Shown here: positions 5,067-64,000 of the stretch, one piece after another
How the letters are laid out: the number at the start of each line of letters is the position of its first letter
Numbering within the stretch: the stretch's first letter is position 1
Source of the DNA: Paramacrobiotus metropolitanus
Taxonomy: Eukaryota; Tardigrada; Eutardigrada; Parachela; Macrobiotidae
DNA: 64,000 nucleotides
Direction of reading: 5' to 3'
Assembly (NCBI RefSeq): GCF_019649055.1
Contig: NW_026570261.1
Span: 744,001 to 808,000 of the forward strand
Notes under the pieces: generated by a model
The model's database searches: none
What the model was told of the DNA's origin: nothing
What the model saw: only the letters and a program-made list of their open reading frames with translations
Translations under genes and position numbers: made by a program

Positions 5067-6245
5067 AAGTATCCTGATTGCGACCGATATTCGAAATTTC
5101 CTTTACTCACCGTTTGGATGCCGCCTGCGAATGGACGTCCAAATGCAGGAGAATTTCAGTAAAGATTTCCGATGGTGTATTACATAGAAGCAGTTCATCA
5201 TCCCCTAAAAACAAATCATTTTATGTCAGCGGTCAAGTAATGATTCTCCGACTCTTGGCTAGGTATCGATAGCCTTCCCCTTCGCCTTTAGAGCGCCTAT
5301 GCCTTCCAAAAGATGCGCCTTCTCGTTGGCTTCCTAATGTTTTTTTTTATATTGTCCTTCCATATTTTCTCTACGTTTCCTTATGTTTCATTCTTATGTT
5401 ATTTGATGTTTTCTTGGAGCTCTTTATGAAATTGTCATCGGAGATGCGGTTCTCGCTTCGCGTAGATTCGTGTGACTTACCAGGTTAGCTGTGCCACATT
5501 TAGATATTAGCTCATACTTTGCCGTTGCGGCAGGTCGGTAAGATAGATTATTACGGTAATTATTCCAATTTAATTGGTCTTTCCGTCCTGTGTGCTAAGT
5601 CACACCATTATTGCATGATTTTTAAAATTTATAATTGATTTTAAAATTTTTTAAATTCATGTTGAAATCTGGAAAAGATTTCAGTGTAAAAGTGATCCTC
5701 ATACTTGTGCTTAATTGTACAAAGTTTAAAAAAAGTTCGGTACATAATGAGACTTTTGGTACAGCTGAATCCGTATAAACGTTTGGAAATTTCTGAGCTC
5801 CCAAACCGGATACTGGGCGCACAAATGGTTTTCACGCCCGTTGTATGCAAATTGTCTGGATACAGAATTTCATGCAACAATGCAAAAAAAAGGGTTTGTA
5901 AGTGGGCGAAGAAGAAAGTTTTTGTGAATGTACACGATTTTGGCACCATGTACCGGGTGACTTCCCTTCATTCTTACCTACGACCTGCAGATCAAATGCG
6001 AGCCCGCCATTTCTTGGCCCGTAACAGTACTGTTCAGTGTAGCTCTTCATGGCCAAGCAGAGTTTTTCGGCGGTATCGGTTTGCCAGCATTCCTCTTGGC
6101 ATGCTTGATTGGTAGATTTTGGTCGCTGATGATAACACGCTATGTCCTGAATAATGAAAGTGACTGACTCTGCACTGATGCGAACGAAGAGTCTATCCCA
6201 TCCCCTGTAGTATATTCGCTCCTAGAAATCAGAAATCCTCTAAAG
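5067..6245. other. Intergenic with one short inverted-repeat element
   Basis: No gene is supported. The segment about 5735-5975 is a MITE-like copy (see separate entry). The remainder is AT-rich, and ORFs here are short and lie on both strands over the repeat. Confidence 0.4.
5735..5975 (-). mobile_element. MITE-like element, 'GGTACATGGTGCCAAAA' family, copy 1
   Basis: On the minus strand the element starts with CCCGGTACATGGTGCCAAAA and ends with ACCAAAAGTCTCATTATG. The reverse complement of the far end contains CGGTACATAATG, so the termini are imperfect inverted repeats. The same start and end words occur with similar spacing at 15562-15790 on the plus strand. It is non-coding, about 240 bp long, and likely a non-autonomous DNA transposon. 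Confidence 0.55.
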
Positions 6246-9251: not shown

Positions 9252-10872
9252 GGGCCTGCACTGAAAGTCTGAATCTGATTCTGATTCTGAATGCTAAAAG
9301 TCCGAGTCTGAATACTGAAACTCTGATTCTGATTACTGGAAATCTGGATTCGAATACTAAAATTTTAAATGTGAATAGAAAGACTCGGAACCTGGCCGGT
9401 GATGACTAAAGTCTCTGTAATAAAAAAATTAAAATATTAATAACTGAAGCGTGCGAGCGAGTCTACAGCGTACATGGATTCTGCTATTACAAAACTGTAA
9501 TTCAGACTATCCAGTAGCGATAAACATAAGAAAAAATAAAAACGGCGGCAGCAAATCTGTAGCAGTACTCTGTACATACGAGTATTTGTGCTGCAGATCT
9601 TAATGCAGCACAATAATATTTAATGCAGACGTTCTGTTTCTTCAAAGCTAGTCTATGCCAGACCGGGCTAATGCCGAATGTCGGCATTAGTCTCTAGGTT
9701 ATTACGGGGATTGTGTTGGATTTTGTTATCTTCGGATGTCGGCATTATTCTCTGTGCTATTCTGGCAATTGTTTTGGAATTTATGGTCTTACTAATGTGC
9801 GACACAGTCGACAAAAGTCGCGCGTCGAATTTAATTGCGGCGAAATGTCACACTCCCAAATGTCCGGGTGCGGTGAGTAAAAAGCTTTACTTCACCCTCT
9901 AAATTTTTTAGGACGTTCTGCCATCACAGTGGTATTAAGCGCAATATTGGCAACTGACACATCAAAATTTTCGAAGGAAACTTGTCAGCAACGTTTGTGG
10001 CAATAAAGAGCATTTCAGTTGAGGCATTTCGAAAATATGACGGTGCAAAAAACAGAAAACGTAGCGCAAGCCATTTCATTTTCCGGTTTTCGAATTCTTT
10101 ACCGAATCTTTTGATTTTTGTTTTCATCGATAGGTTACATAATGCCTTATGCAACTGTAGTGTATGTAAGTACTCGTACAAAGGTTGTACGAGCATCTCG
10201 TGAAATGGATAATGGCCTATGGCAAATGTGTTGTAGCAACGGTATTGTTGTTGTCCGTTATTGTTGCCATGTCTAAATTGTTTAGTGTTGGTTGTTTGCT
10301 GCTGCCCCGAGCCGACATAATAAAAGATTATGCCGTTCGTTCAATATATTACAGAAACAAAAAAAACATAATTAAATTATTTTTTTTGTTGCATAATGCA
10401 CAAATTTTTTAAATTACTTCAAATGAAAGAGAGGTAATTAAAGGAAATTATTTTTGGAATACCCAAAAGAAAGTTTGTTTTGTGCTGCATTAAGATCTGC
10501 AGCACAAACACTCGTATGTACAGAGTACTTCAACAGATTTGCTGCCGCCGTTTTTATTGTTTCTTATGGTTATCGCTACTGGATAGTCTGAATCACAGTT
10601 TTATAATAGTAGAATCCATGTACGCTGTAGACTCGCTCGCATGCTTCAGTTAATAATACTGTTATGGTTTTATTACAGAGACTTTGGTCATCACCGGCCA
10701 GGTTCCGAGCCTTTCTATTCACATTCAGAATTTCAGTATTCAGATCCAGAATTCCAGTAATCAGAATCAAAGTTTCAGTATTCAGACTCAGACTTTTAGC
10801 ATTCAGAATCAGAATCAGACTTTCAGTATTCACTCAGAACAAGAATCAGATTCAGCCTTTCAGCGTAGGCCC
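9252..10872. mobile_element. Non-autonomous DNA transposon with about 370-bp terminal inverted repeats
   Basis: The left arm (9252 to about 9615) and the right arm (about 10480-10872) are inverted copies of each other with scattered mismatches. The outer ends read GGGCCTGCACTGAAAGTCTG (left) and GGGCCTACGCTGAAAGGCTG (right, reverse strand). Each arm has tandem TTCAGAATCAGA-type words near the end. Flanking 7-mers are GCGCTTG and GTGCTCG (5 of 7 identical), a possible decayed target duplication. The spacer (9616-10479) has only small ORFs, so no transposase is present. A 55-bp tandem duplication around GATGTCGGCATTA lies at 9675-9780. The terminus resembles that of the element at 35934-36956. 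Confidence 0.75.
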
Positions 10873-13800
10873 GTGCTCGGTGATCAATGCATGCATCATG
10901 TTTCAAGCATGCATGCTCATTGCTCGACGCGTGCCTTTTTCGCTGCCTTTATGCGCCTATAATTTCTCGACAAGCCCACGTCCATCCGGAGTGCGTACCC
11001 ACTCTACTTTGTAGTTGAAAAGTAATAGCTTTGTGCTGATCGATCGTAACAGCAAGCACGCGCAGCCGGCTCTGGCAAAGCGATATGGAACAATTATCAA
11101 GTGCTGCTTCCCGTGGAGTGGATGAATCATGCAGCATGATACTACCGGCAGATTTGCAAGTGTGAGCATGGAAACTCCGCAGTGAAGTGAGGACGGCACT
11201 AACAGTCGATCCTGCCTCTACTTGCACGTGACATATGAATAAACGTTGCAGATATCTACGTCTAAGCTTTAACCGGCGCTTCCTCTATACTACAACATGC
11301 GGAAGAAGTGTGAAGTGAATACACCTGCGTTGTAGCCTTACAAACACTATTAATTTTGTTTTTCGAGCAGGTACGTGACTCACAGAGTCGCAAGCATGCT
11401 TTATTCTATCACATGAGCAGGAACCATGCATGCATGCTATCTCGCCTTAGCCTGTATAAGGAAGTGCCGAGCCACGACAACAGTTGCTCATTTGAAAATT
11501 TGCAGGCACATGTAAGCAGAAGTGCTTCGGTATAGAAGTAGTTTTTCTCCGCAAATATTCAAGATGATAAGACAGCGTCTATGTGAGGACGTAACCGAGG
11601 CACGCTCAGCAGATGTTTCTGGGTGACCGTTCCTGGTTAATGGTCCTCTAATTTTCTTCATCTCGCAAGCACTCCCGAAATCTCGAAAAAGATTTCTAAT
11701 GTAAGATTTGACAGCATCGAACCTTAAGGACATTTCTAAATCTTGACTTCGTTTTATTCATCATTGTGCATTCTGTATCACATTCAGAGAATAAAGACAA
11801 TCGCTGCGAAGACCACATCATGGCGAACGCGTCCAGGTACATAAGTTGTTTCCAACTTTACCTTGTACTGCGGTGCAAAGTCCCCGCGTTCGCGCTATAC
11901 ATTGATCTTGCATGCTTCCGTGTTAAATATTTTCAGAGCTCCACAAAATGCGTGGTGGGATGAGGTTTCTGTTCCCGGAGCACTTACGGAGAAAACTCCG
12001 TAAGTGTCGGCTTTTCTATCAGCATCAGTTACAATGATCGACCCATGTTTTCCATAAGTCTTTACAAGTGTTTCGTTTAATTGTAACTGTAAATCTTCAG
12101 CTACATGGTAGCGTTTTATGCATGCGTTTTAAGGAAAACGGCCCGGTACATAGCGTCAAAAATGGGATGCATACACTAAAACTTTCGTTTTCGCGCACCC
12201 CGAATCACTTTTTTTTGTTACACTTCATGTCATTCTAAAGCTAAATGATTTGTATACATTGTTCTGAACACCCATTTTAGTACGCCATATCTCGACAACC
12301 GGATGTTGCGCGGGCAAACGGTTTCGGAATAATGTATACTCGTACAAATACAAATCATTTAGCTTTAGAATGACATAAAGTTTTCGAAGTGGCTATTTTA
12401 CCGCAGTCTTTGCGGCAAAATAGATTTTGGCTATTTTGCCGCAGTGTGGTCGTTAAAATAGACTTTTGCTATTTTGCCGCACGCTGCGCTAGAATAGCCT
12501 TAAGCTATTTCGCCGCAGTGTGGTCGGCGAAATAACCATTTCCTATTTTGCCGTCCACTGTGTTAGCTATTTTATCGCAGTTCCCGTCCAGTAAACAAAC
12601 ATTATTGCAGTGAACGTCAGCCGGTATAGTGCGTGTCGGCAGTCAAAATCCGTACTTCTAACGATGACTTCGCATATTCGGGTTGTCCTGTTGCCACTAG
12701 ATGAGGTTGCCCAACTTTCAGGTCTGACCGCTGCCTCTTCCTTGCAGAACATTGCGCACGTTACGTTGAACGTACTGCAACGTGTGCCACGGTTTCTGCA
12801 CATAGGGCCATGTGGTGCAGTAAAGCCAGCAATGAAAATCGATGCACGGATATAGTATTCTACCGTTAAGGCACAAATGCGGAAGAAGATGTAATTATTG
12901 TGAGCGGCATTCCGTAGCTGGAATATGTTGTTACCACCAAACAGGAAGCAAATGCAACACCGTTCGCAAATACGTGAGTTGGACAAGGAGCTGTCGATAT
13001 GGTGCCAGTTTGCTGCTAAAACTCTTCGAAAAACGTTTTTGTTGAGCGGTAACCTGGGCTGTCGGCTATCCTCAAACGAACAAATGAGGGTTGGCTTCAG
13101 GGAACAAAACATTGAATATAACATTAACATCCCATTGAGATTTTGTGGCCCATACTTTGTAAGAGTGCGTTACATTTGTGAATCGGCATAATAACCCTGC
13201 AGTCAGCCTTGCGCCCGTTGCGATCCGCTGCCCTTTACATCAGGTGGACAACTGCAACGGATAAGAAATGATATTCTCGTGTAGCCGTAGATAATAAGTA
13301 ACTTCAACATTAAGTGTGGCTGGTGGTGACCTATGCATCAGGTTGTTACTAAGTTCCGGCTGATGGCAGCTGATCCTGCGTTTTATGATGGCGGGTTACG
13401 GAATTCCAGTGTCGGTCCAGTAGTATCCGCCACCGATTTATGAGCACCAGAATACTGCTGTACCCTAACCCTGCACTTGAAGGAAATTCGTACAGTGCAG
13501 CCACACGAACATGTACGACCGCATTCACCATTCACATACACGGCTTGCCGCTAGTGCATGTTAGAACGTGAATTGGCTGAACGTTTATCCGGCTATACAG
13601 CACCGTGCCGGTCCTAGCGTACAAATTTTCTTCAAGTGCAGGGCTAGGGTCCAGTACCGGTAGCAGGTCAGTTCTGTGTTTTGCTTTGCGACAGTTTGCT
13701 CGCTGACAAATTCCAAGTTGACACAGCTAGCGGATTCGACAGATTACTGGGTTTTGTAAGTGTAATACAAGATGAAATAACCGGCGCAAAAGTTTTCCCG

Positions 13801-14051
13801 TTTCAGTGACTTTGCTAGTCATAAACAAATATACTAACCAACATGTATAATTACGTAAAAACGAAAAGCACAACAGTTAATGCTCACATAACTGTGCAAC
13901 TTTAGCATATGAAATGTCAAAAACGAATGAAAACAACAGACGTCAAAAACGAATGAAAACAACAACAAGGTAGCAGCAAAAACATAAAACAATGGGATCA
14001 TCTATTGGTGCAGACAAAATGAAAGTGGATGTAACGAATCAGCTTTTCCAA
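10873..14051. other. Repeat-rich intergenic region
   Basis: No gene is supported. It holds a repeat-bearing element at about 12130-12580 (separate entry). It also holds a 35-bp hairpin pair at 13453-13490 and 13616-13652 built on CCCTGCACTTGAAG, and an AT-rich stretch before the PHD exon that ends at 14052. The 187-codon minus ORF at 12567-13130 is considered and rejected below. Confidence 0.4.
12130..12580 (+). mobile_element. Transposon-like element with a 'CTATTTTGCCGCAGTGTGG' minisatellite, copy A
   Basis: It begins with GGCCCGGTACATAGCGTCAA, the same terminus as the MITE-like family. Next come a CATACACTAAAACTTTCG word and a hairpin around CATTCTAAAGCTAAATGATT (about 12228-12380). About five diverged copies of a roughly 38-bp unit containing CTATTTTGCCGCAGTGTGG follow (12390-12580). 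A second copy with the same order lies inverted at 25850-26125. It is non-coding. Confidence 0.6.
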
Positions 14052-17000
14052 CTATTCTGGCTCAAAATCTAAACGCTGAACAGGATCGTCAACTGATAAG
14101 CTCTCGTCGCTCCTGCAAAAGCTGCAAAGCCAGTTTTTATCCAGGGGCCCTGGTTCCAGGTGTTGCTGCACGCAACTGCGATGAAACAGCTTGGTAACGC
14201 AAAGCTTGCTTGCACACCTAATCATTGGGTCCGTATGCGATGCATCCATAAATTTTGTTGGCATCTTGGGCATGCGGCAGTAGCAGTGTATCTTGACAGT
14301 TTTTGCTTTTTCCCAACTTGAGCGAACCGCGCAACTGTACGATCGGTCATCCGCTGAGGGAAATCCGCTCCTTTCTGCAAAGGACCCGGCTTCTAATCGC
14401 TCAACGAGATATTCTCGGCATTTCATAAACGGCTGCTCGCTATCCTGCAATAAAAGCGCCACCTGTAAACTTTTGCTCATTTCAGTTTTTTCGTTTTTGC
14501 ATTTATTTTCCCGTTTTCGGTGACGTGCCACCAAAGAACACCAGGAACGTGGGCCTGAATTCATACCCTTACCACCAATGTTAGTTTACCACCAGGTGGT
14601 AATCTTAATAGTTTGCATTCAATGACAACTAGCAATTTACTCTTACTTCGCAGCACAGCTTCGAATGACTTCGAGCATTGTTAATACTCAAACGAAAGTT
14701 GCTCACATGTGCATGTTTAGTGGACAACGAACACTCGCTGCCTAGCGGTATTCGCAAGCGCATCGCTTACAGCTTGAATATCCTATTAAAAGTTGAACAC
14801 ACTCAATTAAAGTCCATTATTTTGGCCTGGATGTTTTGTTTGCATAAGGATTCAACTTATTTGACTGCTGTCAGGAGCAAGGTCATTCAAAAGACAGTAT
14901 ATAGATATTTTCACTATGCTTATGTCGTACTTTTCTTCTAATAACTGGCGCCAGCGCGGAAGACAGTGACAGAGAAGATACGGAATCGTTAACCCTGCTG
15001 AAAACGGCTGATAAGGTGCCCTGTGACCTTAACAGCGATTGATCCAATGACAAAGTGCGTTAAAAAAACTACTTCGCTGAAGTTCACTGGTCTTAGAACG
15101 GTCAGCGACACGGCTGCTTGACTGGAACGTTCAATTAAATATAACGCGTGTTAGATTATACAGACTACTCGTTTTCCTCCATTGTCGCCGCATGAGCAGG
15201 TTAAGGTTGCTATGCTGTACGTACGATACTTCGATCAGATCTGTCATTTGATCACGCTTTACGGTTTGACCGAATAGCTGCATCATATTATTACATTGAT
15301 CGAATGACGGATTTAATCGAAGTACTGAAAAACGACAGTCACTGTTGTATATTCCGCGTCGATTGCGGAAATTTCATAAGCGTGGAGAGTATTGTGCTGC
15401 CACAGATTTCAAGAAAACAGTGATGGCGCACAGGAATAAACCCCTTGCACGTTCACTCGATCGGTCCTTTAATATCTGGCGGTACAGTTTAGTAGTGTTC
15501 GTGTGCTTTGAAAACGTTGAAAATGTAGTGTTGGTATTAATACGTTTACGCAATACCGGGTTAGTGGGAAGTGGCCCGGCACATGGTGCCAAAACTCTCT
15601 CTTTCGCGCACTCTTAGTCACTGTTTTGCAGTGTTTTATGACATTCTTTAGCCAAATGATTTGAATGCGCAAGCGTTAAAACAGTGTGCGCGCGCCCGAA
15701 TTGGTTGGGGAGTTATGTCTGTCGGAAAATTTTGAAAAGCTTGAATGCATTCAGGCATACCTACCAAAAGTCTCATCATGGGCCGATTTCTTTTACACAG
15801 TTATACATGGTACATAAAGGCACATACCCACACACCGAGTGACCGAAATACTGTTTTAGCGTTCTTTCGAAATCTGAAAATATATTTTTAAATTTAATTT
15901 AAAGTACATAATTTTGTAGCAGTAGTGTCTGGTTAATACTGTCATAATTATGAATCGAAATAAAGAAGAGGTTAAAAATTTTTTAAAATTTTAAAAACTA
16001 ATTTTAAGATACGAAAAAGAAGAGCGCATCATTGCAAAGTGTTCGTGACGTACATGGAGAAGTCAAACATGTGCCATAATATTCTTGTGGGGAATTAATG
16101 CGAGAAAAATCAAAAGTTTACTTACTTAAAAAATGAAATACGTAAACCTTGATATAAACCTCTGTATAGCTGCACCGCAAGCTAATTTCGTAGCCTGCCA
16201 CTAATTGTTATGATTGCTATCTAATATCTATAATGCATTGACCGTCAAACCGTAATGCGATGATCAAATTTTTAACAAAATAATGTACCTTTTGCAAGTC
16301 GAACGTCATGAATGTCGGATCCTGATTTCTGCAAAGGAGGTCGCAGTAAGCTGCTGAATACACTCCGCAGTCTTTGCCGTTTCTCTGTTTTTGCACCATA
16401 GGCGTATAGAGTTTGACTTCTTCAAATGCAGGGGGAAGCTGAATGATTGAAGCAATCGCCTGCTTCATAAACGTCGTGACAGACATCATGAGGCTGTCGA
16501 AGATATTCACATAATTTTCCGGCCCGGTGTGAACGTTGGTAACGGTGACCCAATGGTTTCCCCCTCTATTAAGAATTTGAATTTTCCGCAAATCAGATTT
16601 ATCGGGATTAAACCATTTCTGCATAGCGTTCGTCCTCCATTGTTTAATTATATTTCGCGCTCTTTCTTTCTGATCGGCGTCGAGTACCGGTTTCGAGTCC
16701 AGCTCAAAGGTGTTGAAATAACCAAGATGAAGAAATCCACCAAGTTTTGGATTTTCGTGTTGCATAATTGCTAGTACAGCGGTACATATGGTATCGTCAA
16801 TCCATCCTCCGTCCAGTTCCTCTAAAATTCGTCCTCGTTGCCAAAATCCCAAATTTATTCCTTGGCAGGTTGCCCAGTTGCAGTTTTTGGTGAGAGAACA
16901 ATCTGCCAATGGAAAATACAGATTAATAAGAGCACAGTTTATCATTGCAAGTGGTCAACAGACATTTTTTTAATTATAGAGTTTTAGGTTTTTAGACTAT

Positions 17001-20000
17001 TGATACATCAGAAGTGAACAAAAATATCGCGAAGCATGATCATTTAGAGAAACGCTAATTGTACGTAAGTACTTTAAAATATAGAACTGACCAGGGCCCA
17101 TTTTCCCCCTCCAAATTGAAAAAACTCATATTTTGTAAAATGGAAGTGTACTATTGTAGTATGCTTAAAAAAATATTTTTAGCTGCCATCGTCAAGGGTA
17201 CGTGGCCAGACAACAATTAAAAGTTTGCATACTATCACATACTGTGTAGTGTGAAATGCAGTGTAGTACAAGTTATTCGTGATTAATATGTCAACTTTTT
17301 CCTGCAACACCGTGGACCTTTTGCAGCTGTTTGCTGTAACGTAATGCACTGCAGTACACATTTTCGAAAACTTTTCATCATCAATTTGTGTTGTAAACCA
17401 TAAGTTGTGCAAAAAGCATTTTTGCATAAAAGCTGTTTTTTGCAAAAAGCTGTTTTTTCTAAAAAACAGATATCTATGTGTGCTGTACTTCATAACAAAT
17501 TTTTGAAAATGTGCACACAAGCAGCAATGGCGCGAGCCGACGCTCGTGGGGCTCTTTTACATCATTTCATTCTGTCCTCTCAGTTACGCGTTGGATTCTA
17601 TACTAATATAATATATAGACAGATTACGTCTGCCATATGTTACATTAGGCTTGCCCGTTTCAACCGTGCAGCGCCTACGTAATACACCTCTCACGCTGCG
17701 TATTTCTTGCAAAGTAGTGTTCCTGTTGTGCGACCGATCGTGCAGTTCCGTAGTATGTATAATAAATTCAAAATATTGATAAAAATGAGAAAAACACAGA
17801 TTAGTTACTGGAACAAAATAACATCATTGGCTTAACTTGCCTGTAGCCAGATCTCTATATTTAACTTTCGGGTACTGTGCTCATATGCATTACGTATGCA
17901 TTACGTAGACGGAATTTGATTGTTAGCTCTCTATGGACATTCCGTGTTCGAATAATCACAGCATACCTAGATACAACACATCTGTCTCATATCTATCTAG
18001 TATCTAGATACACCATACCTACCACAACGTATCTAGAATACAGCATACCGGTATCTAGCCAGAAAATTTCGCACCCTCGAATGAAAACGAGAATGACAAC
18101 TTCCTCTCCAGGAATATTTCATTCATATTCTGTCTGCATTTGCAGAGTACTTCAATTATTTTTTTAGGCAATTTAAAATATTCGGCGAATACGGGAAGAT
18201 CTCGTGAAAATGCCTGCTAGTTATATCTTTTTGTTAGGATTTAAAATTAAACATGAACAAGATCGAAACAAGAATAACACGACAATCTTGCAAAAACGAG
18301 CTTAATGAATTACGCTTACCGCCAATATCAATACCAAAGCCTGCTGCCTTTTGATACCAATGTTGAATAACCGTCCACTCTATCATGCCATGAACTGTTG
18401 CTCCCAGGTTCACTAAAGTGCGAAGAAGCTTTCGCCAACCGCGGTCATCTGTTGGATAGACGATATCTGTGCGTAAGTCTGCCATTCCCAGCATCCCTCT
18501 ACTTTCTGTACTAGTTGAATTATCTGTCGCTATCGCTGTCACTTGCGCAATCGCGTCCGCGGAAAAGTATTTTGAAAGCTGCTTTATAGCTCCGATGACC
18601 TTGGAATCTTTATTTTGGTTCGCCAAATTGAGAGAATTTGCTTCCTCCGGAACTCTTTGACTTGCAGGCGAGCGCTCTTCAACATCAGATGCCAGTGGTA
18701 GATTTTCAGAGCCGGCATCACAGGTTTGCTGGTCAGGTGTATCTTCATTCATCTATAATAAAGTTGTTTTCAATAACTAAGTTGTTCTTAACTGGTTAGT
18801 TAATTAACAAAGATCCAAGTTCAATAAAGCCACCAGCTTAATTTTCTGCACCGAAGCAACTTTTTCGAAGCGGGTCTTTTTGGTTTTCTTGCCAGGAGTG
18901 TTAAACTGCAGTTTCCGTTTCCCTCCTTTTGGTCGCCCTGGTGGCTGCGTTGCCATGTCCACTAGTTTGAATGGCAATTCTTTATTCGGATCCAAAGATC
19001 CAAAGTTGTTTGATGTCTCCCCAACGTCTGTTCTCAAATTTCTGCTCGGCGATGTGCCTGCAAAGTACATGTAGTCCGTAAAATGTTAAAACGGCATTTG
19101 TTACTTTAGTAAGCCCAAAAAACAGCTTGCTTCAAACGAATAGAGTATGGCAGCGCAGAATTTTAGGAAAGCAGTTTTTTGGTCACCTCCGGACACTTAG
19201 AGAAACCTAGAGTAGAGTGAAACTTTAACGAGCCACTCTAGTGGTAAAAGGTGTTCTACGTGAACGTGAACTCTACGTGACTGTGTAACCGAGTATTCAT
19301 TGATTCGAGCCCTGGATTACAAGAAACGCGTAGGCGAAGCCGCATCTGCTTCTTCTAAGCTAACGCTAACGCTAGCTAGCTTCTAGGATCAAGCTAACGC
19401 TGATTTCCAGTGTACGGAGCTCGTTAGTGAACAAGCTACCACTACTGTCCAATGCACAGAGTCCGTTAGGTGGACGAGTGACCGAACTAACGCTGCTGTC
19501 CAGTGTAACGATTGACCGAGCTACCACAACAGCCCAGTGCAGACAGTCCGCCAGGTTAACGATTGACCGAGCTACCACTACTTTTCTGTTGACCGAGCCC
19601 ACTAGGTGAGCTAGGTACCGAGCTTTCACTTTTTTCTAGTGGACAGAGCTCATTAGGTGAGCGAGTGACCGAGCTGCCATTACTGAGAAGCATCAGGTTG
19701 GGGGTTCAGAGAACCATGGATTTAATACTGATTTGAGAGAATCTGTATTATTATATAAAACAGGTGTTTGTGCGCTATGGCGATGTACCGATCATATTAC
19801 TACGAAATATAGAGGTGATACCAATAAGTAAATATTTAATCAAAATCAAATAAAGTGGCCGTGAATCACAAGAAACGCGGAAGCGAAGCAGAGACTGTTT
19901 CTTATACTTATATATGAGGCGGTGAGCGATGTACCGACATAGCATTTTTGTAAAATCTGAATATACAGACAAGTTGACCTTTGCTACACTTCGGTCGAAA

Positions 20001-23000
20001 TTTACTTTACTAAAAATCGAGAGTTTTTAAGCGAAACCAGCTTTTTTCGAAACCAAGTCGTAATATTACCTTTGTTAGGCGTGTGTTCCGTTCCTTCGAA
20101 CGGGTCGACAGCATCGTGTTCCGGAAACTGGGAAACTGTCGCAATCGGAGGCTCTGGCACTAATTTAATGTTGGTATCAGCAAAGACTGCGTCCTGTGAA
20201 TCAGTAGTACTTCCGCTATGGCGTTCGGCTGAACTAGGTAACCTCAGGTCGTTAGAAGGACGCTGGTTCGGTGCGAGAACTACCGTTATTGCAATTCGGT
20301 CACCAGGAACACCATCCTTAACTGCCTTTTTCAGCTGGTGTAAGAGTTCGAGATATTCACTAAAACGCTTTCCGGCGTAAACTGCTACACCGGAGCTTAT
20401 TTCTTTTGCGATGTTAAGTGCCAAACCGAAACGAGCTTCGCGGGATAGCGCATGCTTAACGACCGCTTCACCGTCTACAAAATCTTCAATATCCTCGTCA
20501 TCAAGATGAGAAAGCGCATGTGCTACCAGTGCTGAGCGTAGAAAATCGTGATCCAGTCCCGAGAATGACCGATGCCACCGTCCGATTGCATCGTTAATTT
20601 CCACGTACGCACCACACATTGAGTGCCTGATACACATGATGTGCCTGCATGGCAGACCAAAAGTACAGCTGAAGAAGCAGGTACACACCAATCGGTATTC
20701 AGGTTCTTTGCGTCTAGCACCGTCCGTTTCATGAGCTTCGCGTTGTATGATATATTTCACATCGGTTAGGGTGTTTGTCAGGGTCCAGTTTTCGTCATCC
20801 ACTTCTTGAACATTAAAATGGTTCATTTCGCTTCGCAACTTCTTCAGCTGAATGTAGAGAAGGCGAACAGCGCTCTCGGTTAGAAGTTTTCCAGCACGCT
20901 CCAGTGCACTGCCGAACTCCGCACAATTGACGTATGTAGTCTTGGAAATGTTTAAAAATTCGGAGTGCTGCGACGTCGCATCAGCCATTACCAAAAATTT
21001 AATAAGCGTTGAGACAGCCTCGCTGGTCCTCATGTTAGTCCGCTGGACAGATCTGTGAGAGATTTAGAATTTTGAAAATTTTATGGTGATGATGTGCCTA
21101 TATTTCGTGAATGTTGACGGGTCAATCAACATAACTTAATAACAGTAATTGAATACACTTGGATACAAAATTTTGAATAGTAATATAGTAATTGAATACA
21201 AAATTTTGGATAGTAATTGAATACAAAATTTTTAGTTTCTTTATGGTGGGTACAGTCCAAAGACAATACGAATGCAAGACAGTTTCGCTTCCTTCAGACT
21301 ATGGCACAGCTTACGAATTGCCCGATGATTGCTGTTGGAAAACCATCCGATTTTGTGATCATAACTGGCATCACTACTCGAATGGCGGCCCAACACTGAA
21401 TCGGGAGCTAAACAGGCAGAAGAATATGGGTTGACCTTTAGTGGTTTTTTACATTTCACTAATTCCCCGTATAGGTTAGCAAACGCAAAAGAACAGAACA
21501 GACAAAAATTATTGTTACCTTTCGCATTTACAACGCTACCGCTATATCAACTTGACGTCCCTTTGTGGATGTCTGCTCTTATGCCGCCATAATAATAAAA
21601 GTGATTATAATAATATGACAGACCACATCTGTCGTATGTCAGATATGGCTTCATCCGTGCCGCGCTTACGGGAGAAAAGCCGAAATCTTAATAATAAATG
21701 TTCGCTTAAGCTTCACTTCACGTGCACACTTTTGACTAAATGATACCAAGGATTTTAAAAAAGATTGCAGTTATTCTCACCTGAAAAGCAGTTTAATCGC
21801 GCGATTGAGAGCCTCCACCCGGTTCGTGGTGTTGTTTCCTAGGGCGCGCACTGTTTTCCTCGTGTATGATGCCCACATATCCACACAAGGAAACCAGTTA
21901 CGAGCGCAGTACTCATAAAACTGTTCCGAGCAAACTTTTCCGAATTTCTGGAGGCGAACGTGATATTCGTCTATCGAATTCGAGTACAGCAGAGATTGAA
22001 ATCCAGCAAACATCAGCTTTTTGCGCTCCACGCTCTCGCCTGAAGCAGCCACCTCTAGCTTGATGCTTTTTAGCACGTGAAACCAGCACAATAACACAAC
22101 GGCGGTCGGGAGTTCCAGTCTCAGTGCAGCCATTTCTTTGCGATCTTTGTCTATAAATACCGTAGAAATCCGAGCAAGATTTTCGACAGTGGACGTTTCC
22201 TTGAACAGTCTAAGGAACTTTCTAATGAAATCGCTGCTGTCCTTGGTAACAAATCCAACGGCTACTGGTCTGGTATAGCCGTTGTTATCCTGTGCAGCTA
22301 ACACGTAAAGGGGATACCGTTCTGCTGTCACATTATATGTTCCATCCATAAACAAAACTTCAGGGAACCTATCAGATGCAACCACAAAGCACTGCGTTAT
22401 TAATACCGATACTGCAGTTAATAAGTATTTCTAGTATTTATTTAGGGCATGGTTTTTTTGGCACTCTTATACCAGCGTTTACCATGTTTTGTCTATTTTT
22501 ATAGCATTGCATCCGTTGAGCAGAACGCCTATAACAGAAACCTGTGACCAATGTCAGTTGCCCAGTACCTCTTAGAAACTTAAATTTTTCTTTCGTAGTG
22601 AAGATGTAAACGGATAATTTTTTCCGCCTTTCTACCAAGCACAAATTATGTATGTATGTATGTATTTATGTATGTATATTATGTATGTATGTATTTCTAC
22701 CGAAGCAAAGCAAACGCCATGTTTGTTCAAAGAAACAGGAATTTGTGTTTGTCGGTCAACATCAAGTCTCCCGTTTAACATTATCCAATCCCTTTAGCAA
22801 AGAAAACTACCACTCAAAAGACGGCTTTGATTAAAAAGCTGTGGCTGGCGCTCCATTTTCATTAAATATATCGAAGATAATTTATCTAGTTAATTATTGT
22901 CCGGAACGCGGTGTTCGACAGCTTATTACGAATATCACAAACAGGAAATGCAATAGTTTGCTGCATCTCTACGTATGATTCTGTTTTGTCGCTTCGCTTC

Positions 23001-23791
23001 GGTCTTTTAGCGCTAGCCAACAGCGGTACACTTCCCTTGTACAAGCATTTTCACTCCAAGTTATAGACTCATAAAGGACCTTAGTTTTCAACATACCTAG
23101 CAAACGTATCCTTCATTTTGCTGGTTACTAGAACAAGTACTTCGAGGTCGCCTTTAGCGTTTGAGGAGAATTTGACCTCCAGCCCAGGGTCAGTCTGCTT
23201 CGCGCTCTGAAGTCCTTGCTGCAAGATCTCTTCCTGCGACTTTGCACCTCGAATTTTCACCTTGTCCTGAGTGCGAATATTGTGAATATCTTTCGGGCGC
23301 ACTTCCTTCCCCGTATTCTGTTTCATTGAAGCAACAATTGCGCTAACACCAGTTCCCATGCGCAATAGCTCTTTGACTTTCTCGCGATCTGTTGCTGCCA
23401 GTCTTCGGACAGAAGGATAATGGGAATACACTGCCTCTAACAGTTCATGGTTGTGATACAGACTGCTCTGCGTGCAGTGTATACAGTTTTCCTTTTTGTT
23501 GTAATAAAAAACAAGTCTTGCAGGACACTCTTTTCTGAAGGTGTTTTGAACCGGACGAACTTCTGTCGCTTTCCGTTTTCCTGTTCTTTTTCCATGAATA
23601 CACAGCAACTCCAATCGGAGATATTGGCCTGGCGCATCAGAGCGAAACTTAGTTCTACCCTTCCGGAACACTTGCTTTGTTCGATCGTTGTACCCATCCA
23701 TAAAAGCCATCTGACTGTCCGTGTTTTCCCATTCCTGTCCTACCGTAATTAACTCCGCTGGCTGAAAACCAGCAAGACTAGGTTCCTCCAT
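14052..23791 (-). CDS. MULE-type transposase-derived protein: FAR1-like, RNase H-like, SWIM, C48 protease, PHD (7 exons)
   Basis: Exons on the minus strand are 23791-23097, 22368-21781, 21052-20070, 19057-18834, 18752-18320, 16902-16289 and 14444-14052. Every junction has GT/AG ends and matching phase, and the total is 3930 nt (1309 residues). Exon 1 has a FAR1/FLYWCH-like zone (CPARLVFYYNK...HNHEL). Exon 2 holds the MULE RNase H-like core: FPEVLFMDGTYN (first Asp), FIDKDRKEM (second Asp) and NRVEALNRAIK (Glu). Exon 3 has a SWIM finger (CTC..CRHI, CxC-x9-CxH) and exon 4 an AT-hook-like PPGRPKGGKRKL. Exon 6 is a C48 Ulp1-like protease with NHWVTV (His), IFDSL (Asp) and QRNGKDCGVYS (Gln, Cys). 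Exon 7 is a C4HC3 PHD finger starting CYCRMP. Related multidomain proteins are known from MULE-like transposons and ZSWIM1/3-type host genes. No inactivating lesion is seen. Whether it is a live transposon or a host gene is open; no TIRs were recognised at its edges. Confidence 0.8.
15562..15790 (+). mobile_element. MITE-like element, 'GGTACATGGTGCCAAAA' family, copy 2
   Basis: It starts with GTGGCCCGGCACATGGTGCC followed by AAAA, and ends with ACCAAAAGTCTCATCATGGG. These are the same start and end words as copy 1 (5735-5975, opposite strand). An internal CGCGCCCGAATTGGTTGGG word parallels GCGCCCAGTATCCGGTTTGG of copy 1. It sits in the last intron (16288-14445) of the MULE-derived gene. Confidence 0.5.
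19400..19700. repeat. Imperfect 60-70 bp tandem repeats in an intron
   Basis: Units contain GACCGAGCTACCACTACT, CCAGTGCACAGAGTCCGTTA and related words four to five times. They lie in the intron between exons 3 and 4 of the MULE-derived gene. A second pair, ACAAGAAACGCG..GCGAAGC at 19320 and 19868, flanks the array. No coding capacity is seen. Confidence 0.5.
22648..22700. repeat. (TATG)n microsatellite
   Basis: About a dozen TATG units occur, interrupted by TATTTATG and TATATTATG variants. The array lies in the intron between exons 1 and 2 of the MULE-derived gene. Confidence 0.8.
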
Positions 23792-26359
23792 TAGAAAATT
23801 GTCGTCGAACGCCTGAGATCTTCACATAATAAGCTAGATTATCTCTCGGTAATCCGAAACAGGAATGAGACCAACTTATTGTAAGAAAACTGGACACTTT
23901 TGGACTATTTAATTCTGAATTACGTAAATCACTAGAATACGAGCTTTTTGACAATAATTTGTTACAATAAATTTTCGGTGGGTATGTGGTCATTTAGAGC
24001 ACTGCAGTCACAAGACGCTTAATTACTTTCACAGCGAATATGCCGATAATAGTATGCTGATTCGTTGACGTATATCCGGCCGCCATCTTTACTGAGCTGA
24101 AGGCGTACCATTGGGCGGGTTTCTCCAGTAGCCTTTCCAGATGCTCAGCGATAGGTAGGAACGGCCGCCTTTTTTGAGTCGAAATATGTGGGTGGGAAAG
24201 GGAAGTGAAGGCATGGTTCAACCGAAACATCGGTGAGTTATACCTTAGCTTCTTCGCACCAAATTTAGATTAGCTTATTTGGGAATGCAGACTGAACTAT
24301 GCTGTCTGTGTTGAGTTAATATGTATTAATATTTGTTTCGTTTTATTTTGCACGGCGAGTGTGATATTCTAAAGTCGCAGCAGTTTTGCTGACCTCTGCG
24401 ACGGTACTGGTTTTGCTGCGCGGCATATAACAGATAACCTTTGATTCTGCTCTGTTGCTGCACAAATCGATATTTTTTACTGCTTTCAAACTCTTTTCAA
24501 AAGGATACTTTATGAAGTTGTACTGCGTCATGCTGGTTTAACGTGACCTTTAATCCAAAAAAAACAATCGATAAATATCTGGGCTTTACTATTTTAATAT
24601 GCACAAATATATACTTGACCTTTAACTTCAAAATAAGTGACTATTTTACTTAAATTAAGGAATCGGCAGGGCACTACTTCGAGTGATATTCGCATATGTC
24701 GGTGTGACCGACAGGATTTCAAGAGCGTGACCGACGCTGCATAATATTAATCACTGTGTCTGCAAACTCCGAACTCTGAACACTCCTCGTTACGATCTTA
24801 ATTGCATAAGCTTGTTTGGCAGTTTCACAAATTCATCCTGATAGTATCGAAGAGTGAAAAGAACTAAAGGTCAGCATTCTCTGGCCGAGTTACGGCGGAC
24901 GTCTGTTTGCCGTTTCTGTTTCGCTTTTGTTGGGTTGACGTAAACTGATTTTTGTCACGCTGACATACTGTAATATAATTTTTGACAGGCTGATGTAAAC
25001 ACATGGTTGGACAATCGCCTTGAAATCAGCGTGTATCACGAAACAATAGCAGGAAATAAATAAGTTCTTTTCTCACCATCCGTTCAAATAAGTCATAGCG
25101 CTTTACACCGCAAAATTAGCCGGCAAAACGTCCAGTTTTTGATAGTATGAGATTGCTGGTTGATCGGACAGTTTTAGCACGTACACAGTGCTTTAAATAC
25201 AGTATTCTTTTAGCAACGTGACGGATGGCATTACTTAGGAAATACAGCAGTAAGAATAGGTTGCGGTAAAAAATGTGGTCATCAGCCGTGAGTATACGAC
25301 TATACGTAGACGTCCACTTTCCACTATTTGGGCATTCGGTCACCAAGTGCACAAATGGGTGGTGGTCGTTGCTAGCAAGTGCACACAATCACCAGTATAT
25401 ATTTCCACCGTTGGTAACTCGTGGTGTCCGTCTGTTTGCCACCCCCACCATTATGTGGTGCTCGCGTTCCGATTTTCTCCGGGCTATCAACATCTTTATC
25501 AAAATTTAATAGGCTGGGCTGGTCGAAGGGCGTGGACGGTAAGCAAACGGCTTCCACAACCCGGGCAACAATATCAGCATGTGTAACGATAAGTTGCTCT
25601 TCCAGTGGGCCTTTCTACTTTAAAAAAAAACATAAAAAGGGGGTAAATTAATCACTTCGTATGATTAGGTCCTGATACGCTGCGCTTGTGCACTGCCCGA
25701 AAAAAACTCGAGTGCGCTTTGTCAGTAGAATTTTACCTTGCGATGAGTTAAACACGTGCACATACCCATCGCCCGAACCAGAACTACGGGGAAAGAAGAA
25801 AACTCCCGTTGAGACCTCGCACCCGTTCTCAGGCACCCGGCTACAGGCATGCTGCGGCAAAATAGCTATGGGCTATTTGAACGCAGTGGATGGCAAAACA
25901 GTACAAGGTTATTTCGCCGCCCACACTGCGGCAAAATAGTAAAAGGTTATTTGAGCGCACTGTGCGGCAAAATAGCAAAAGGCTATTTTGACGCACTGCA
26001 GAAAAATGCGGTAAAAAAGCCATAGCCTAAAGTTTTACAAAAAAGTTATTCGGAGTTCGCAAAAACAAAAGCTTTAGTGTATGTATTCCATTTTTGACAC
26101 CATGTACTGGACCATTTCCCTTAAGTAAGACTACCATTTCAAAATACTTTTGCGACTGCTGTACAGATACGGAGTACTGCAACAACATACAGGGTACTTT
26201 GGTTGTTTTCTTATGTTCAAAATTTAACCGTGAAGTGGTGTGTCAGCGCATGCGATTACTGTTATTCGGGTGGCTATTGCCCAGTAAATTTTGCTGAGCG
26301 CTAGTGCACTACAATGATTCTGCAATGAAAGTTTCCCCCCTAATACGGTGCGCTTGCAG
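23792..26359. other. Intergenic between MULE-derived gene and Spartan gene
   Basis: This is the shared upstream region of two divergently transcribed genes (minus at 23791, plus from about 26360). No convincing ORF is seen. A promoter is expected here but none is recognised. The segment 25850-26125 is an inverted copy of the minisatellite-bearing element. The missing 5' exon of the Spartan gene may lie in this region. Confidence 0.4.
25850..26125 (-). mobile_element. Transposon-like element with 'CTATTTTGCCGCAGTGTGG' minisatellite, copy B
   Basis: Read on the minus strand it starts with GGTCCAGTACATGGTGTCAA. It continues with CATACACTAAAGCTTTTG and then four to five roughly 38-bp units containing CTATTTTGCCGCA. 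Order and content match copy A at 12130-12580, without the internal hairpin. The inner units read as CGGCAAAATAG on the plus strand. Confidence 0.6.
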
Positions 26360-29095
26360 GAGAAATGCCAATACGGTTATCAAAGCCAGGAGGATGAGGA
26401 ATTAGCCCAAACATTGCATGATATGCTGGTGTTGCCTACTGAGTCATCTGCGCGGAGACCTCACAATTGTAAATTCGCCGTAGAAAAGGCTTATCCTGAT
26501 GGTATTTCGCTGGCTGATCCGGTGTGGGAGATGCGCGACCCAACCCCAGATATTCATGCATTGTTCAGAAAGTTCGATGCGGACTACTTTTGGAATACTC
26601 TCTGGAAGGTGAAAGTGAAGTGGACCAACAGACTGATGCGGTAAGTTTCAATCAGGCCACTGGCACCTGATTACTGCCTTCATTGTCAATTGCAGTATGA
26701 AGTTTCGCTACTGTAATAAAAGTTCTGACTCCGGTTAGACTACAAGGTGAGTGTTCTAAGCTGAGCGCTTGTGATGGGAAAAGAGCGCTTTCAACATAGA
26801 ACTGCCCCGGACACTGGCAAGTGGCACATGCAATACACACGTTGTAAAAGCAGTTTTCCTGTACCTGTACTGGCTGTACACATTCTGTGGTATACTTGTG
26901 AGCCACTACAATGGCTCGCACAGGTATTCATACTGAGCAGGGCAAGAACGGACCAGAACGTGGTCTATGTTGATCGGGCGGCTATTGTATTGGAACTCCA
27001 ACCAGATTCTGGTTGGAGGGTGTAATTAGCTCTTATAAAATATTAATGCTACATAGAGGATCCCATCTGTGTTATCCTCTACGAGAAACGAGCCGAGCAG
27101 CTTTTATGTAGAAGTGTATTTTGAGAGAAGTTTCACTGCACAGTACAAACCTAATTGTCAGTAGCCACAACTTCCTCAAAATTCAAAATCAGACATGTCT
27201 TCTGTTACGAGTACCCAACACCTTATGCAAAATGTTTCCTGTACTTCGATTTTTCGCAAAAATTGGCCATTGAGCTTCCGTGTGAAGTGTTGCATGGTGG
27301 ACCGTTGATCGAAGTGCTCATGACGTTTATACTCCACTGGAGTGTATACTGATATATCTGGTTGCTACCGACAAAGTGCACAGCTGACATGATCATGGTT
27401 AATAATGCACCCGCGACCAGCTGTCCAACATATAAAGCAAAAGCGACCTATTGTTGAGAAATGTCGAAGCATCTGTCTTTTATTTGCTTTCTTATTACAG
27501 ATATGCTGGGGTTTTTGGGAGACGAGAATGCTTGATAGCGCTCAGTTTACCACTACTGAAGTTCCGTCCGCGCAAAGATCTCGTTGCTACTCTGCTGCAC
27601 GAGATGATTCATGCTTACCTTTTCGTAACAAACAACCAGGATAATGACGACTGGCACGGTTACAATTTCCGCGAGCAGATGTTTCGCGTTAACAAGTTAT
27701 CGGGTGCTAACATTACGGTCAGCCACCGTTACCTTCTTGAAATGGAATACTTCCGTCAGCATATATGGCGCTGCAATGGTCCTTGCCAGTTCTGCAAGCC
27801 GCATTTCGGGTATTTCCGGCGTACACGTAATCAGCCGCCTGGCCCGGCTGACTACTGGTGGGTCTCTCACGCTAAAATCTGCAACGGACTGTTCATCGAA
27901 ATCAAAGAACCCCAAATGTGTACCAGCAGAAAACGAAAAACTCCAGATGTCGATGAATACAACGAGTACGGCGAACAATGTGGAATTTTTGGACCTCCAC
28001 CAGGTAAACGTTGGCTACCAGGACAACTGAGAGTTTTGGTAACCCTACCTTGCGATCGTCCACTGGGTGAGCAGTACCCAAGTTTTTTAAGCATTAGCGC
28101 CTGAACTGGAAGTATCGAAATCATATCACACAGCTGTAGCACATTTGCCGCTTAGTACGAGTAGGTTTGGTGATTCGACTTTAGGACTACGAAAATTCGT
28201 CTAACGTTTCGAAGTCGAGCAAGCACGATGTCGGCCCCTTAATAAGGCGAGTTAATTTGTTGCGACACGAAATTTTTTTCGTAAGGTTTTGGAAATGTTT
28301 AAGCCTTCGTATATTTCTTAATTTTCATCCCTTCGTGACGTTCGACGCATTAAAGTCGACCTATGACGGTTGACGCAGTAACGAATAAAGCAAGCCGGCT
28401 AGCGAACGAATATTTTCTGAAAGTTTTGTGCCATATGTTTGTGACTTCCAGTATGCGAAACGAATTTTGCAGGTGTAGGATTACCACCGGTCGGTGTCTC
28501 AGCCTGTAAACCAACACAGTTTGGCCTGTCGGTCAATGGAACTCCATCTTCCGGCTTCCCGGGTTATGGACAACCACCATCGGCTGGTAGGATGAATGCA
28601 ACACCGACGGGTGCTCCTAAATATGGGCCCAACCCTAAGCAGCCGGTATACGGACCGTTTTCGGGGGCTGCTCCTTCTTATAGACCTACAACGTCTGGCG
28701 TGCCGGTCAACGGGTCCTCACCAAGGGCTGTTTCTGGTAATGGGCCATCATTGAACGGCCGGCCAGGATGTAGACCCCAATCGTTCGGCTGGCCAAGCCG
28801 GCCGGGTTATCGACCCAAACCGGCGGCTGTTTTTCGTTATGGACCACCATCGTCCGCTCAGCCGGGATACAGACCACCGCCTTCCGGCCTGCCGGGATAT
28901 GGACCCCCATCGTCGTCGAGTTTGGTGTACGGGTCAACCCCGTCAGGGTCCAGACCGACCAACCGGCCGGTTTACACACCACAATTTTCGGATGTTCCGC
29001 GATCTGGACCACCCCCGCGAGCTGTTCGTGTTTATGGGGCCACCGTCCGCGTGACCATTTTGTTGGCCACCGCCTTCGGTTGCCCCGGTTTATGA
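26360..29095 (+). CDS. SPRTN: SprT-like metalloprotease Spartan (DNA-protein crosslink repair), with Gly/Pro-rich tail
   Basis: Three exons are seen: 26360-26640, 27501-28066 and 28473-29095. Junction phases match (CG|A gives Arg, G|GT gives Gly). Exon 1 ends DPTPDIHALFRKFDADYFW..VKWTNRLM, the conserved start of the SprT domain. Exon 2 continues with KFRPRKDLVATLLHEMIHAY, the zinc-binding HExxH site, then NITVSHRYL, WRCNGPCQFCKPHFGYFRR and DYWWVSHAKICNG, as in animal Spartan. The enzyme cleaves proteins crosslinked to DNA during replication. The tail from exon 3 is about 200 residues of a degenerate 12-15-residue repeat around GYGPPSSG. No PIP box or UBZ4 finger, usual in the vertebrate protein, is visible. 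The true N-terminus is unresolved: exon 1 starts after an acceptor (CTTGCAG), and the first in-frame ATG is at 26423. Repeat-like sequence continues out of frame past the stop. Confidence 0.85.
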
Positions 29096-63662: not shown

Positions 63663-64000
63663 GCTCCGGTGACTCATTCGACCTCCAACATCCGACCGAA
63701 CCACCGGACAAGGATAACCCCACTAACCAGCCGCTTACTTACCGGAACGAACTGGATTTCCCCATAACGGTCGAGGAGGGCACTCAACAGATAGAAGCCA
63801 TCCTCCAACTACTCGGATTGAACCAAAATAGTTCAATAAACGACTTCGCAAAAGCGATGTCGACCTCCACAAAGGAGGTAGAGACAGCTCGAAAGTTGGC
63901 TGTTCGGCTCGGCGTGTACGTCAACAATGGCACCGTCGAAGCTTGGCCCGGAATACAACAAGTACTCCAGGCAACCGACACAGCGCACCAACCAGGCGTT
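63659..64000 (+). CDS. Start of second retrotransposon ORF (pol/protease side), partial
   Basis: ATG at 63659 overlaps the gag TGA as ATGA, and its frame (-1 relative to the end of gag) stays open to the window edge, 114 codons. It begins MSSGDSFDLQHPTEPPDKDN and contains VEEGTQQIEAILQLLGLNQN. No protease or reverse-transcriptase motif has been reached yet. The overlap suggests coupled re-initiation or -1 frameshifting for expression. Confidence 0.5.
   Translation, partial: MSSGDSFDLQHPTEPPDKDNPTNQPLTYRNELDFPITVEEGTQQIEAILQLLGLNQNSSINDFAKAMSTSTKEVETARKLAVRLGVYVNNGTVEAWPGIQQVLQATDTAHQPGV

What the first reader, a model, noticed from the sequence alone, without database searches (positions are those of the whole stretch)
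14052..23791. Seven-exon MULE gene fusing transposase core, SWIM, C48 protease and PHD finger, apparently intact
Every exon junction has GT/AG ends and the phases agree over seven exons (3930 nt, divisible by 3). All expected catalytic and ligand residues can be pointed to: the D-D-E of the RNase H-like core, the CxC-x9-CxH SWIM finger, His/Asp/Gln/Cys of a C48 protease, and the eight PHD ligands. Long introns with minisatellites and a MITE argue for long residence. A transposase joined to a SUMO- or ubiquitin-type protease and a histone-reading finger could act as a chromatin regulator if domesticated, or be a large autonomous MULE.
Basis: partly seen in the sequence, partly recalled or inferred. 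Interest (0 to 1): 0.85.

Follow-up and report, generated by a model that had tools for sequence, protein, structure and literature searches.

The report
Large seven-exon Mutator-like jumping gene
A big 'cut-and-paste' jumping gene in what is probably a tardigrade genome encodes one long protein joining a transposase, a SUMO/ubiquitin-type protease and a PHD-like zinc finger; it belongs to a recently mobile transposon family rather than being a tamed host gene, and protease-carrying Mutator elements are already known elsewhere.

Summary
The seven-exon model reproduces exactly, with one correction: relatives put the exon-4 donor at 18852, not 18834 (3912 nt, 1303 aa). The gene lies inside a complete Mutator-superfamily transposon, window 12385-26027 (13.6 kb), with asymmetric terminal repeats, 13-bp motif arrays at both ends and a perfect 9-bp target duplication, inserted in an older MITE. 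The same genome holds relatives with the same exon order; three, 98.4-99.6% identical and 20-22 kb long, sit at different sites with different 9-bp duplications. Window versus C149 shows purifying selection on transposase, protease and PHD exons (dN/dS 0.09-0.17). Of 57 convergent end pairs among listed ends, 6 hold gene hits, so large non-autonomous partners seem common; seven were inspected. Domestication is not supported. MULE and C48 exceed Pfam cut-offs; PHD is weak (best E 0.0015). Ulp1-bearing Mutators, and PHD beside Ulp1, are in print (PMC2836005). Transposition is inferred from sequence; protease and PHD roles are untested.

The parts
12385..26027 (-). Complete Mutator-like element (13,643 bp) that contains the gene
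   Evidence: terminal repeats, TSDs and homology end points with other copies
12376..12384 (.). Left target-site duplication TAAAGTTTT
26028..26036 (.). Right target-site duplication TAAAGTTTT
12385..12564 (.). Terminal repeat CGAAGTGGCTATTTTACCGCAG plus tandem array of the CTATTTTGCCGCA motif (3' side of the gene)
   Evidence: 7 motif copies in the outer 250 bp
25852..26027 (.). Opposite terminal repeat (GGCTATGGC... read from the end inward; diverged from the family form) plus motif array (5' side of the gene)
   Evidence: 5 motif copies in the outer 250 bp
23097..23791 (-). Exon 1: N-terminal region with sub-threshold ZSWIM3_N/FAR1 similarity (about 23438-23656)
   Evidence: alignment reaches the start Met in C149 and C27
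21781..22368 (-). Exon 2: MULE / ZSWIM1-3-type RNase H-like core with D-D-E
20070..21052 (-). Exon 3: following region with SWIM pattern CxC-x9-CxH (about 20641-20685)
18852..19057 (-). Exon 4 (donor corrected from 18834 to 18852)
18320..18752 (-). Exon 5: linker; its ATG is not conserved in C149
16289..16902 (-). Exon 6: C48 (Ulp1-type) protease catalytic domain
14052..14444 (-). Exon 7: PHD-like C4HC3 finger (about 14115-14285) and stop
12129..12375 (.). Left part of an older, high-copy MITE into which the element inserted
26037..26124 (.). Right part of the same MITE

Best explanation
The finding is the transposase gene of a complete copy of an autonomous-type Mutator-superfamily (MULE) DNA transposon. 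Shown by sequence: the element has asymmetric terminal repeats, arrays of a 13-bp motif at both ends and a 9-bp target duplication; several copies share the seven-exon gene; many further end pairs in the genome hold no gene hit, and the seven of these inspected share little but the ends. Inferred: the protein binds the repeated CTATTTTGCCGCA motifs through its N-terminal and SWIM zinc fingers, the D-D-E core cuts the element out and inserts it with a 9-bp stagger, and the same protein mobilises the non-autonomous elements. The C-terminal C48 protease most likely removes SUMO or ubiquitin-like marks from silencing or repair factors at the element or target, and the PHD-like finger tethers the complex to chromatin. 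These last two roles are inference only.
For: Exact 9-bp duplications at the window copy, C149, C1a, C1b and C31 (5 of 5 gene-bearing copies with both ends read). C1a, C1b, C31 are 98.4-99.6% identical at three sites with three different duplications. Flanks joined with one duplication align across the junction to 10 of 10 MITE loci examined. C189 is an internally deleted relative of the window element, 94-97.5% identical. dN/dS window vs C149: 0.140 over all exons (1200 codons, 2dlnL against 1 = 549.6), 0.121 exons 1-3, 0.170 C48 exon, 0.092 PHD exon (dS 1.0-1.6, near saturation); window vs C13, protease and PHD exons, 0.120 (dS 0.87); window vs C48, exons 4-7, 0.202. Residues conserved. End patterns occur 140 and 158 times with up to 2 mismatches, reversed-pattern control 0; among the first 100 listed of each, 57 convergent pairs under 32 kb against 7 wrongly oriented pairings. 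Each outer 250 bp of 13 of 13 elements has 4-8 motif copies, the whole interior 0-3.
Against: No transcript, no transposition assay and no relative from another species could be examined. One end of the window copy departs from the family form (GGCTATGGCTTTTTTACCGCAT), so this copy may transpose poorly. PHD is below Pfam's cut-off. AlphaFold models of exons 6 and 7 were poor (mean pLDDT 38.1 and 44.0) and give no support. Two of seven sampled non-autonomous elements (L043, L046) have no matching duplication; C189's is inexact; those of C48, C13, C27, C69 and C265 were not tested. Constraint on the window copy since its insertion is not shown: window vs C189 exon 7 gives omega 0.62, not different from 1.
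Confidence: 0.93

Rival explanations
1. The window gene is a domesticated host gene that happens to lie among transposon remnants, kept for a chromatin role.
For: All seven exons open; strong purifying selection between diverged paralogs; D-D-E, C48 and PHD residues kept; in exon 7 the window lineage shows 1 change, the C189 lineage 5 changes and two indels, with 1 change unassigned.
Against: The gene lies inside matching ends with a perfect duplication; 98.4-99.6% identical relatives sit at other sites; selection between transposing lineages is expected for an active family; a deletion derivative close to this copy exists. The exon-7 counts are too small to show constraint on the window copy itself.
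Confidence: 0.05
2. Two genes: a transposase gene (exons 1-4) and a separate protease-PHD gene beginning at the ATG of exon 5, as MuDR has two genes (MuDR from recall).
For: Exon 5 begins with ATG directly after its acceptor; in the fetched C13 stretch only protease and PHD exons were hit.
Against: The ATG is ATC in C149, while donor, acceptor and phase are kept; exon order and strand are the same in the window, C149, C1a, C1b and C31.
Confidence: 0.08
3. A structurally intact but now inactive MULE copy.
For: One terminal repeat of the window copy has diverged; some relatives are broken (C1a exons 1 and 3, C31 exons 2 and 6, C27 rearranged with a stop in exon 2).
Against: No stop or frame break in the seven exons; perfect duplication; window and C189 differ by 3.1-3.7% in three aligned noncoding stretches. 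This reading is compatible with the best explanation and concerns only present activity.
Confidence: 0.3

Closest known systems
Mutator/MuDR elements with an Ulp1 domain from hydra and lancelet (PMC2836005: passages and discussion section read; the Repbase reports it cites not seen)
   Same: Mutator DNA transposons encoding an Ulp1 (C48) domain; a figure legend aligns Ulp1 and PHD domains of Ginger1 and Mutator transposases
Kaonashi/KIU Ulp1-bearing MULEs of Arabidopsis (PMC2528002, PMC13317346: passages)
   Same: MULE plus Ulp1 domain; strong conservation reported in eudicots
   Different: Non-TIR elements; Ulp1 is one of several coding genes and in reverse orientation to mudrA in KI-MULEs (direct and reverse cases are reported in melon); here it is in one protein with the transposase
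Rehavkus (PMC6446971: table and passages)
   Same: 9-bp TSD, TIRs, PHD finger, minisatellite
   Different: Reported from arthropods and annelids; no protease or SWIM listed; here the core scores as Pfam MULE; no sequence was available for a test
Phantom MULEs (PMC6446971: table and passages; original paper PMC2927773 not held)
   Same: Animal MULEs, 8-10 bp TSD where given, FLYWCH or SWIM in some, minisatellite in aphids
   Different: No protease or PHD listed; phylogenetic position not tested here
Ginger1 transposons (PMC2836005: passages)
   Same: C-terminal Ulp1 and, in Ginger1-9_HM, Ulp1 plus PHD
   Different: Integrase-type core, not a MULE core
ZSWIM1/ZSWIM3 proteins (Pfam family names only)
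   Same: RNase H-like domain family matched at 4.4e-27
   Different: The window gene is inside a mobile element and carries protease and PHD-like domains

Membership tests
Mutator (MULE) superfamily | MULE-type D-D-E transposase domain | tested here: met
   PF10551 1.3e-12, over cut-off; D-D-E invariant in 5 of 5 copies
Mutator (MULE) superfamily | target-site duplication of 8-11, usually 9 bp | tested here: met
   9 bp exact in window, C149, C1a, C1b, C31 and in 5 of 7 sampled non-autonomous elements; inexact in C189
Mutator (MULE) superfamily | terminal inverted repeats | tested here: met
   asymmetric terminal repeats plus inverted motif arrays
Mutator (MULE) superfamily | demonstrated transposition | not testable with these tools
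   only sequence evidence of past transposition
Ulp1-bearing Mutator elements | C48 domain in the element with catalytic residues | tested here: met
   PF02902 1.0e-7; 6 of 6 copies hit; His/Asp/Gln/Cys invariant
Ulp1-bearing Mutator elements | common descent with the hydra or lancelet elements | not testable with these tools
   their sequences are not held
Kaonashi/KIU MULEs | non-TIR ends | tested here: not met
   terminal repeats present
Rehavkus | Rehavkus-type transposase core | not testable with these tools
   no reference sequence available; core scores as MULE
Phantom | clade membership in a transposase tree | not tested
   no reference sequences available
PHD finger | C4HC3 ligands and profile score above cut-off | tested here: inconclusive
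   ligands kept in 7 of 8 copies; Pfam below cut-off; ING PHDs by profile, best E 0.0015; model unusable
Domesticated transposase gene | loss of terminal repeats, duplication and mobile copies | tested here: not met

The most novel reading that the evidence does not exclude
An animal counterpart of the plant VANDAL anti-silencing systems: the transposase itself carries a deSUMOylase and a chromatin finger, binds tandem arrays of one short motif at the element ends, strips silencing marks there, and so keeps a whole set of very large, cargo-bearing non-autonomous elements (end pairs without gene hits reach about 17 kb, one listed pair 27 kb) mobile in one genome.
Probability: 0.12. Interest if true: 0.75.

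Novelty: new member of a known kind. Interest (0 to 1): 0.42.

Why it matters
It adds what is probably a tardigrade example (host inferred) to the recurring but unexplained link between Mutator or Ginger transposases and Ulp1-type proteases, here in one long spliced protein under long-term purifying selection. Near-identical copies at different sites, ends of about 180 bp shared with elements that otherwise differ, and many further end pairs make the question 'what does the protease do for the transposon?' open to a direct test. For annotation, the gene should be labelled a transposon gene, not a host regulator.

Tried and rejected
The outer inverted repeats (12129-12214 / 26039-26124) were first taken for the element's terminal repeats. 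The homology end points of C189 and others at 12385 and 26027, and the high copy number of the outer repeat, showed that they belong to an older MITE.

AlphaFold models of exon 6 (A2, 6 rows) and exon 7 (A1, 8 rows) had mean pLDDT 38.1 and 44.0, so no fold search was run. Scans of viral contigs with exon 2 and with the exon-6 alignment confirmed no relative. Families PF01484 and PF00379, tried to narrow down the host phylum, gave no match, but no control genome rang either, so they say nothing. A second conserved gene was looked for by comparing reading frames of at least 45 aa of the window element, C149, C1b and C189 (minus-strand frames overlapping the window's own exons were left out of the printout). 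The window hits were antisense shadows of exons, matches to C189, terminal-array hits, and one isolated 42-aa hit to C1b that was not followed. A short C149/C1b match (C149 230998-231366) was not followed either.

dN/dS for window-C1b and C149-C1b protease and PHD exons gave a saturated dS and is not used; C1b-C31 (omega 4.1) and C1a-C1b have too few changes; C27-C69 (0.52) does not differ from 1.
Full report
OBSERVATION. Pfam finds ZSWIM1-3 RNaseH-like (4.4e-27), MULE (1.3e-12), Peptidase_C48 (1.0e-7) and DUF5575 (1.3e-6) above cut-off, and ZSWIM3_N, ZSWIM1-3_helical and FAR1 below cut-off. SWIM and PHD were not reported for the full protein at E<=1. The SWIM pattern CxC-x9-CxH is there by eye and kept in 5 of 5 exon-3 copies that cover it. 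The PHD-like finger, scanned alone, scores below Pfam's cut-off (7 of 8 copies at E<=1, best 0.0036). A profile of the eight copies retrieves 15 solved chains at E<=1: 14 ING proteins (best 0.0015) and adiponectin. The protease profile retrieves 13 chains at E<=1, SENP2 first (0.0042), mostly sentrin-specific proteases but also a ULP-domain protein and two chains of a WRKY factor.

ONE CORRECTION. In C149, C48 and C27 the sequence homologous to the end of exon 4 has a donor where the window reads TTCG|GTGCAG (18852). The frame is unchanged: 3912 nt, 1303 residues. The ATG at the start of exon 5 is ATC in C149 while splice sites and phase are kept, so exon 5 looks internal and exons 1-7 form one gene as far as sequence can tell.

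THE ELEMENT. Inverted repeats flank the gene. The outer pair belongs to a high-copy MITE: its 87-bp left arm has 40 listed matches of 89% identity or more, the window's own included (494 first-look candidates, 40 scored). Homology with other copies stops at 12385 and 26027, and there a perfect 9-bp duplication TAAAGTTTT is found. Joining the flanks with one duplication gives an alignment that runs across the junction in 10 of 10 MITE loci examined, at 74-84% identity. So a 13,643-bp element inserted into an older MITE.

THE FAMILY. Searching the same assembly with the protein and mapping exons gives copies with the same exon order and strand at C149, C1a, C1b and C31, plus incomplete or rearranged ones at C48, C13, C27, C189, C69 and C265. 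In the aligned exon parts C149 and C1b show no stop, like the window; C1a is broken in exons 1 and 3, C31 in exons 2 and 6. C1a, C1b and C31 are 98.4-99.6% identical over 21.7, 20.3 and 20.2 kb, with sharp ends and three different 9-bp duplications, AAATCTAAG, ATATTTTAT and ATAAGTAAA. C149 is read as GAACTATCG within a longer shared run. C189 is close to the window element but internally deleted, 94-97.5% identical by BLAST; three aligned noncoding stretches differ by 3.1-3.7%; its duplication is inexact. Both ends of C48 and the left end of C13 were not fetched, and those of C27, C69 and C265 were not resolved, so no duplication was tested there.

SELECTION. Window against C149: dN/dS 0.140 over 1200 codons; 0.121 for exons 1-3, 0.170 for the protease exon and 0.092 for the PHD exon, each far from 1 (dS 1.0-1.6, near saturation). 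Window against C13 (protease and PHD exons): 0.120 with dS 0.87; against C48 (exons 4-7): 0.202 with dS 0.82. C149 against parts of C27 and C69: 0.16-0.27 with dS about 0.3. C48-C13, a recent pair: 0.097 (2dlnL 9.1). Results that do not show constraint: C27-C69 0.52, window-C189 exon 7 0.62, C1b-C31 4.1 and C1a-C1b 0.52, none different from 1. Long-term constraint therefore covers all modules, but constraint on the window copy since insertion is not shown.

ENDS AND NON-AUTONOMOUS ELEMENTS. The two end sequences differ: GGCTATGGCTATTTTRCCGCAG and CGAAGTGGCTATTTTRCCGCAG. With up to two mismatches they occur 140 and 158 times; the reversed control gives 0. Of the 100 of 140 and 100 of 158 places that were listed, 57 form convergent pairs under 32 kb, against 7 wrongly oriented pairings. 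Six of the 57 contain gene hits. The other 51 include 7 pairs under 1.3 kb and 44 between 2.7 and 27 kb. 'No gene hit' rests, which score only the best candidates, so it is not proof of absence. The window and C189 are not among the 57. Seven of the 51 were fetched. They share about 180 bp at each end with gene-bearing copies (printout cut). Their interiors are mostly unrelated to five gene-bearing elements: 0-723 aligned bases of 2150-5755, the larger values coinciding in size or place with 15-17-bp minisatellites. Five of seven have exact 9-bp duplications. Of the ten exact duplications read in all, nine have at most two G or C. One element (L043) carries a tyrosine-recombinase-like frame (Phage_integrase E 2.6e-4, below cut-off) whose other relatives are mostly elsewhere in the genome, and another (L045) a frame of a dispersed repeat family. 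In 13 of 13 elements (6 with the gene or part of it, 7 without) each outer 250 bp holds 4-8 copies of CTATTTTGCCGCA or its complement (up to 2 mismatches), with 0-3 in the whole interior and 0.016 per 500 bp in window 28000-60000. The motif was taken from the family, so this is description rather than an independent test; the non-autonomous elements were chosen by their outermost 22 bp only.

MECHANISM. Inferred: transposase binding to the end arrays, D-D-E cleavage, 9-bp staggered insertion, mobilisation in trans of elements with the same ends. Two ideas in print bear on the protease. Ulp1/OTU domains may act in repair or SUMO/ubiquitin signalling during transposition (PMC2836005, discussion section read). 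In Arabidopsis, VANC proteins remove DNA methylation from their own elements by binding short motifs that have accumulated as tandem repeats (PMC5735166, passages), and Ulp1-bearing KIU elements are reported to act likewise (PMC13317346, passages). The end arrays here resemble that arrangement, but nothing here tests it. From recall of ING structures, the tryptophan of the K4me3 cage is replaced in these fingers (Leu in five copies, Tyr in two, the eighth being frame-shifted), so histone reading should not be assumed.

HOST. G000 has 169,799,020 bases and its contig C1 is 4,484,719 bases. For the tardigrade Paramacrobiotus metropolitanus a 170 Mbp genome and a current assembly with longest scaffold 4.48 M and N50 1.0 M are given (PMC11191345, passages). 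I infer this host; no sequence test was possible.

KNOWN OR NEW. Ulp1-bearing Mutators are reported from plants, hydra and lancelet, and PHD next to Ulp1 from Ginger1 and, by a figure legend, Mutator transposases (PMC2836005). Rehavkus has PHD, minisatellite and 9-bp duplication (PMC6446971, passages). Arthropod MULEs are reported as 1.4-10.0 kb (PMC13359780, summary in the search listing; passages), shorter than these. A tardigrade repeat-curation paper lists MULE among superfamilies and has no hit for 'protease' or 'Paramacrobiotus' in its main text (PMC11071193, passages). My ten searches of the held library did not show this family; most subscription papers are not held and Repbase was not searched. 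I file it as a new member of a known kind.

Noticed in passing
G000 end pairs; L042-L048: 51 of 57 convergent end pairs hold no gene hit (7 under 1.3 kb, 44 of 2.7-27 kb). Seven were inspected: interiors hold minisatellites and fragments of other repeats, one with a tyrosine-recombinase-like frame. They look like large Pack-MULE-type elements.
   Followed up: partly
window 26318-28104: A Spartan (SPRTN)-like gene on the + strand follows the element's right end: SPRTN_ZBD 5.2e-19 and SprT-like 1.3e-17 in 27502-27999. The open frame from 26318 looks like its earlier exon by eye but has no Pfam hit; it has an acceptor-like CAG before it, so the element may lie in or just before an early intron.
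   Followed up: partly
window 12129-12384 and 26028-26124; L032-L041: High-copy MITE with near-palindromic structure; a related end lies in the last intron of the gene (about 15561-15640).
   Followed up: partly
window 12222-12381: Hairpin with 34-bp arms, 97% complementary, inside the MITE part.
   Followed up: no
window 9269-10826: Inverted repeat of about 347 bp, 92% identical, arms 867 bp apart, next to the element; not identified.
   Followed up: no
G000:C31:398908-400079: A 1172-bp inversion distinguishes the C31 copy from C1a and C1b.
   Followed up: no
window 60001-64000: G+C rises to 0.55-0.57 with strong A-over-T skew (0.28-0.39), against 0.38-0.49 G+C elsewhere in the window.
   Followed up: no
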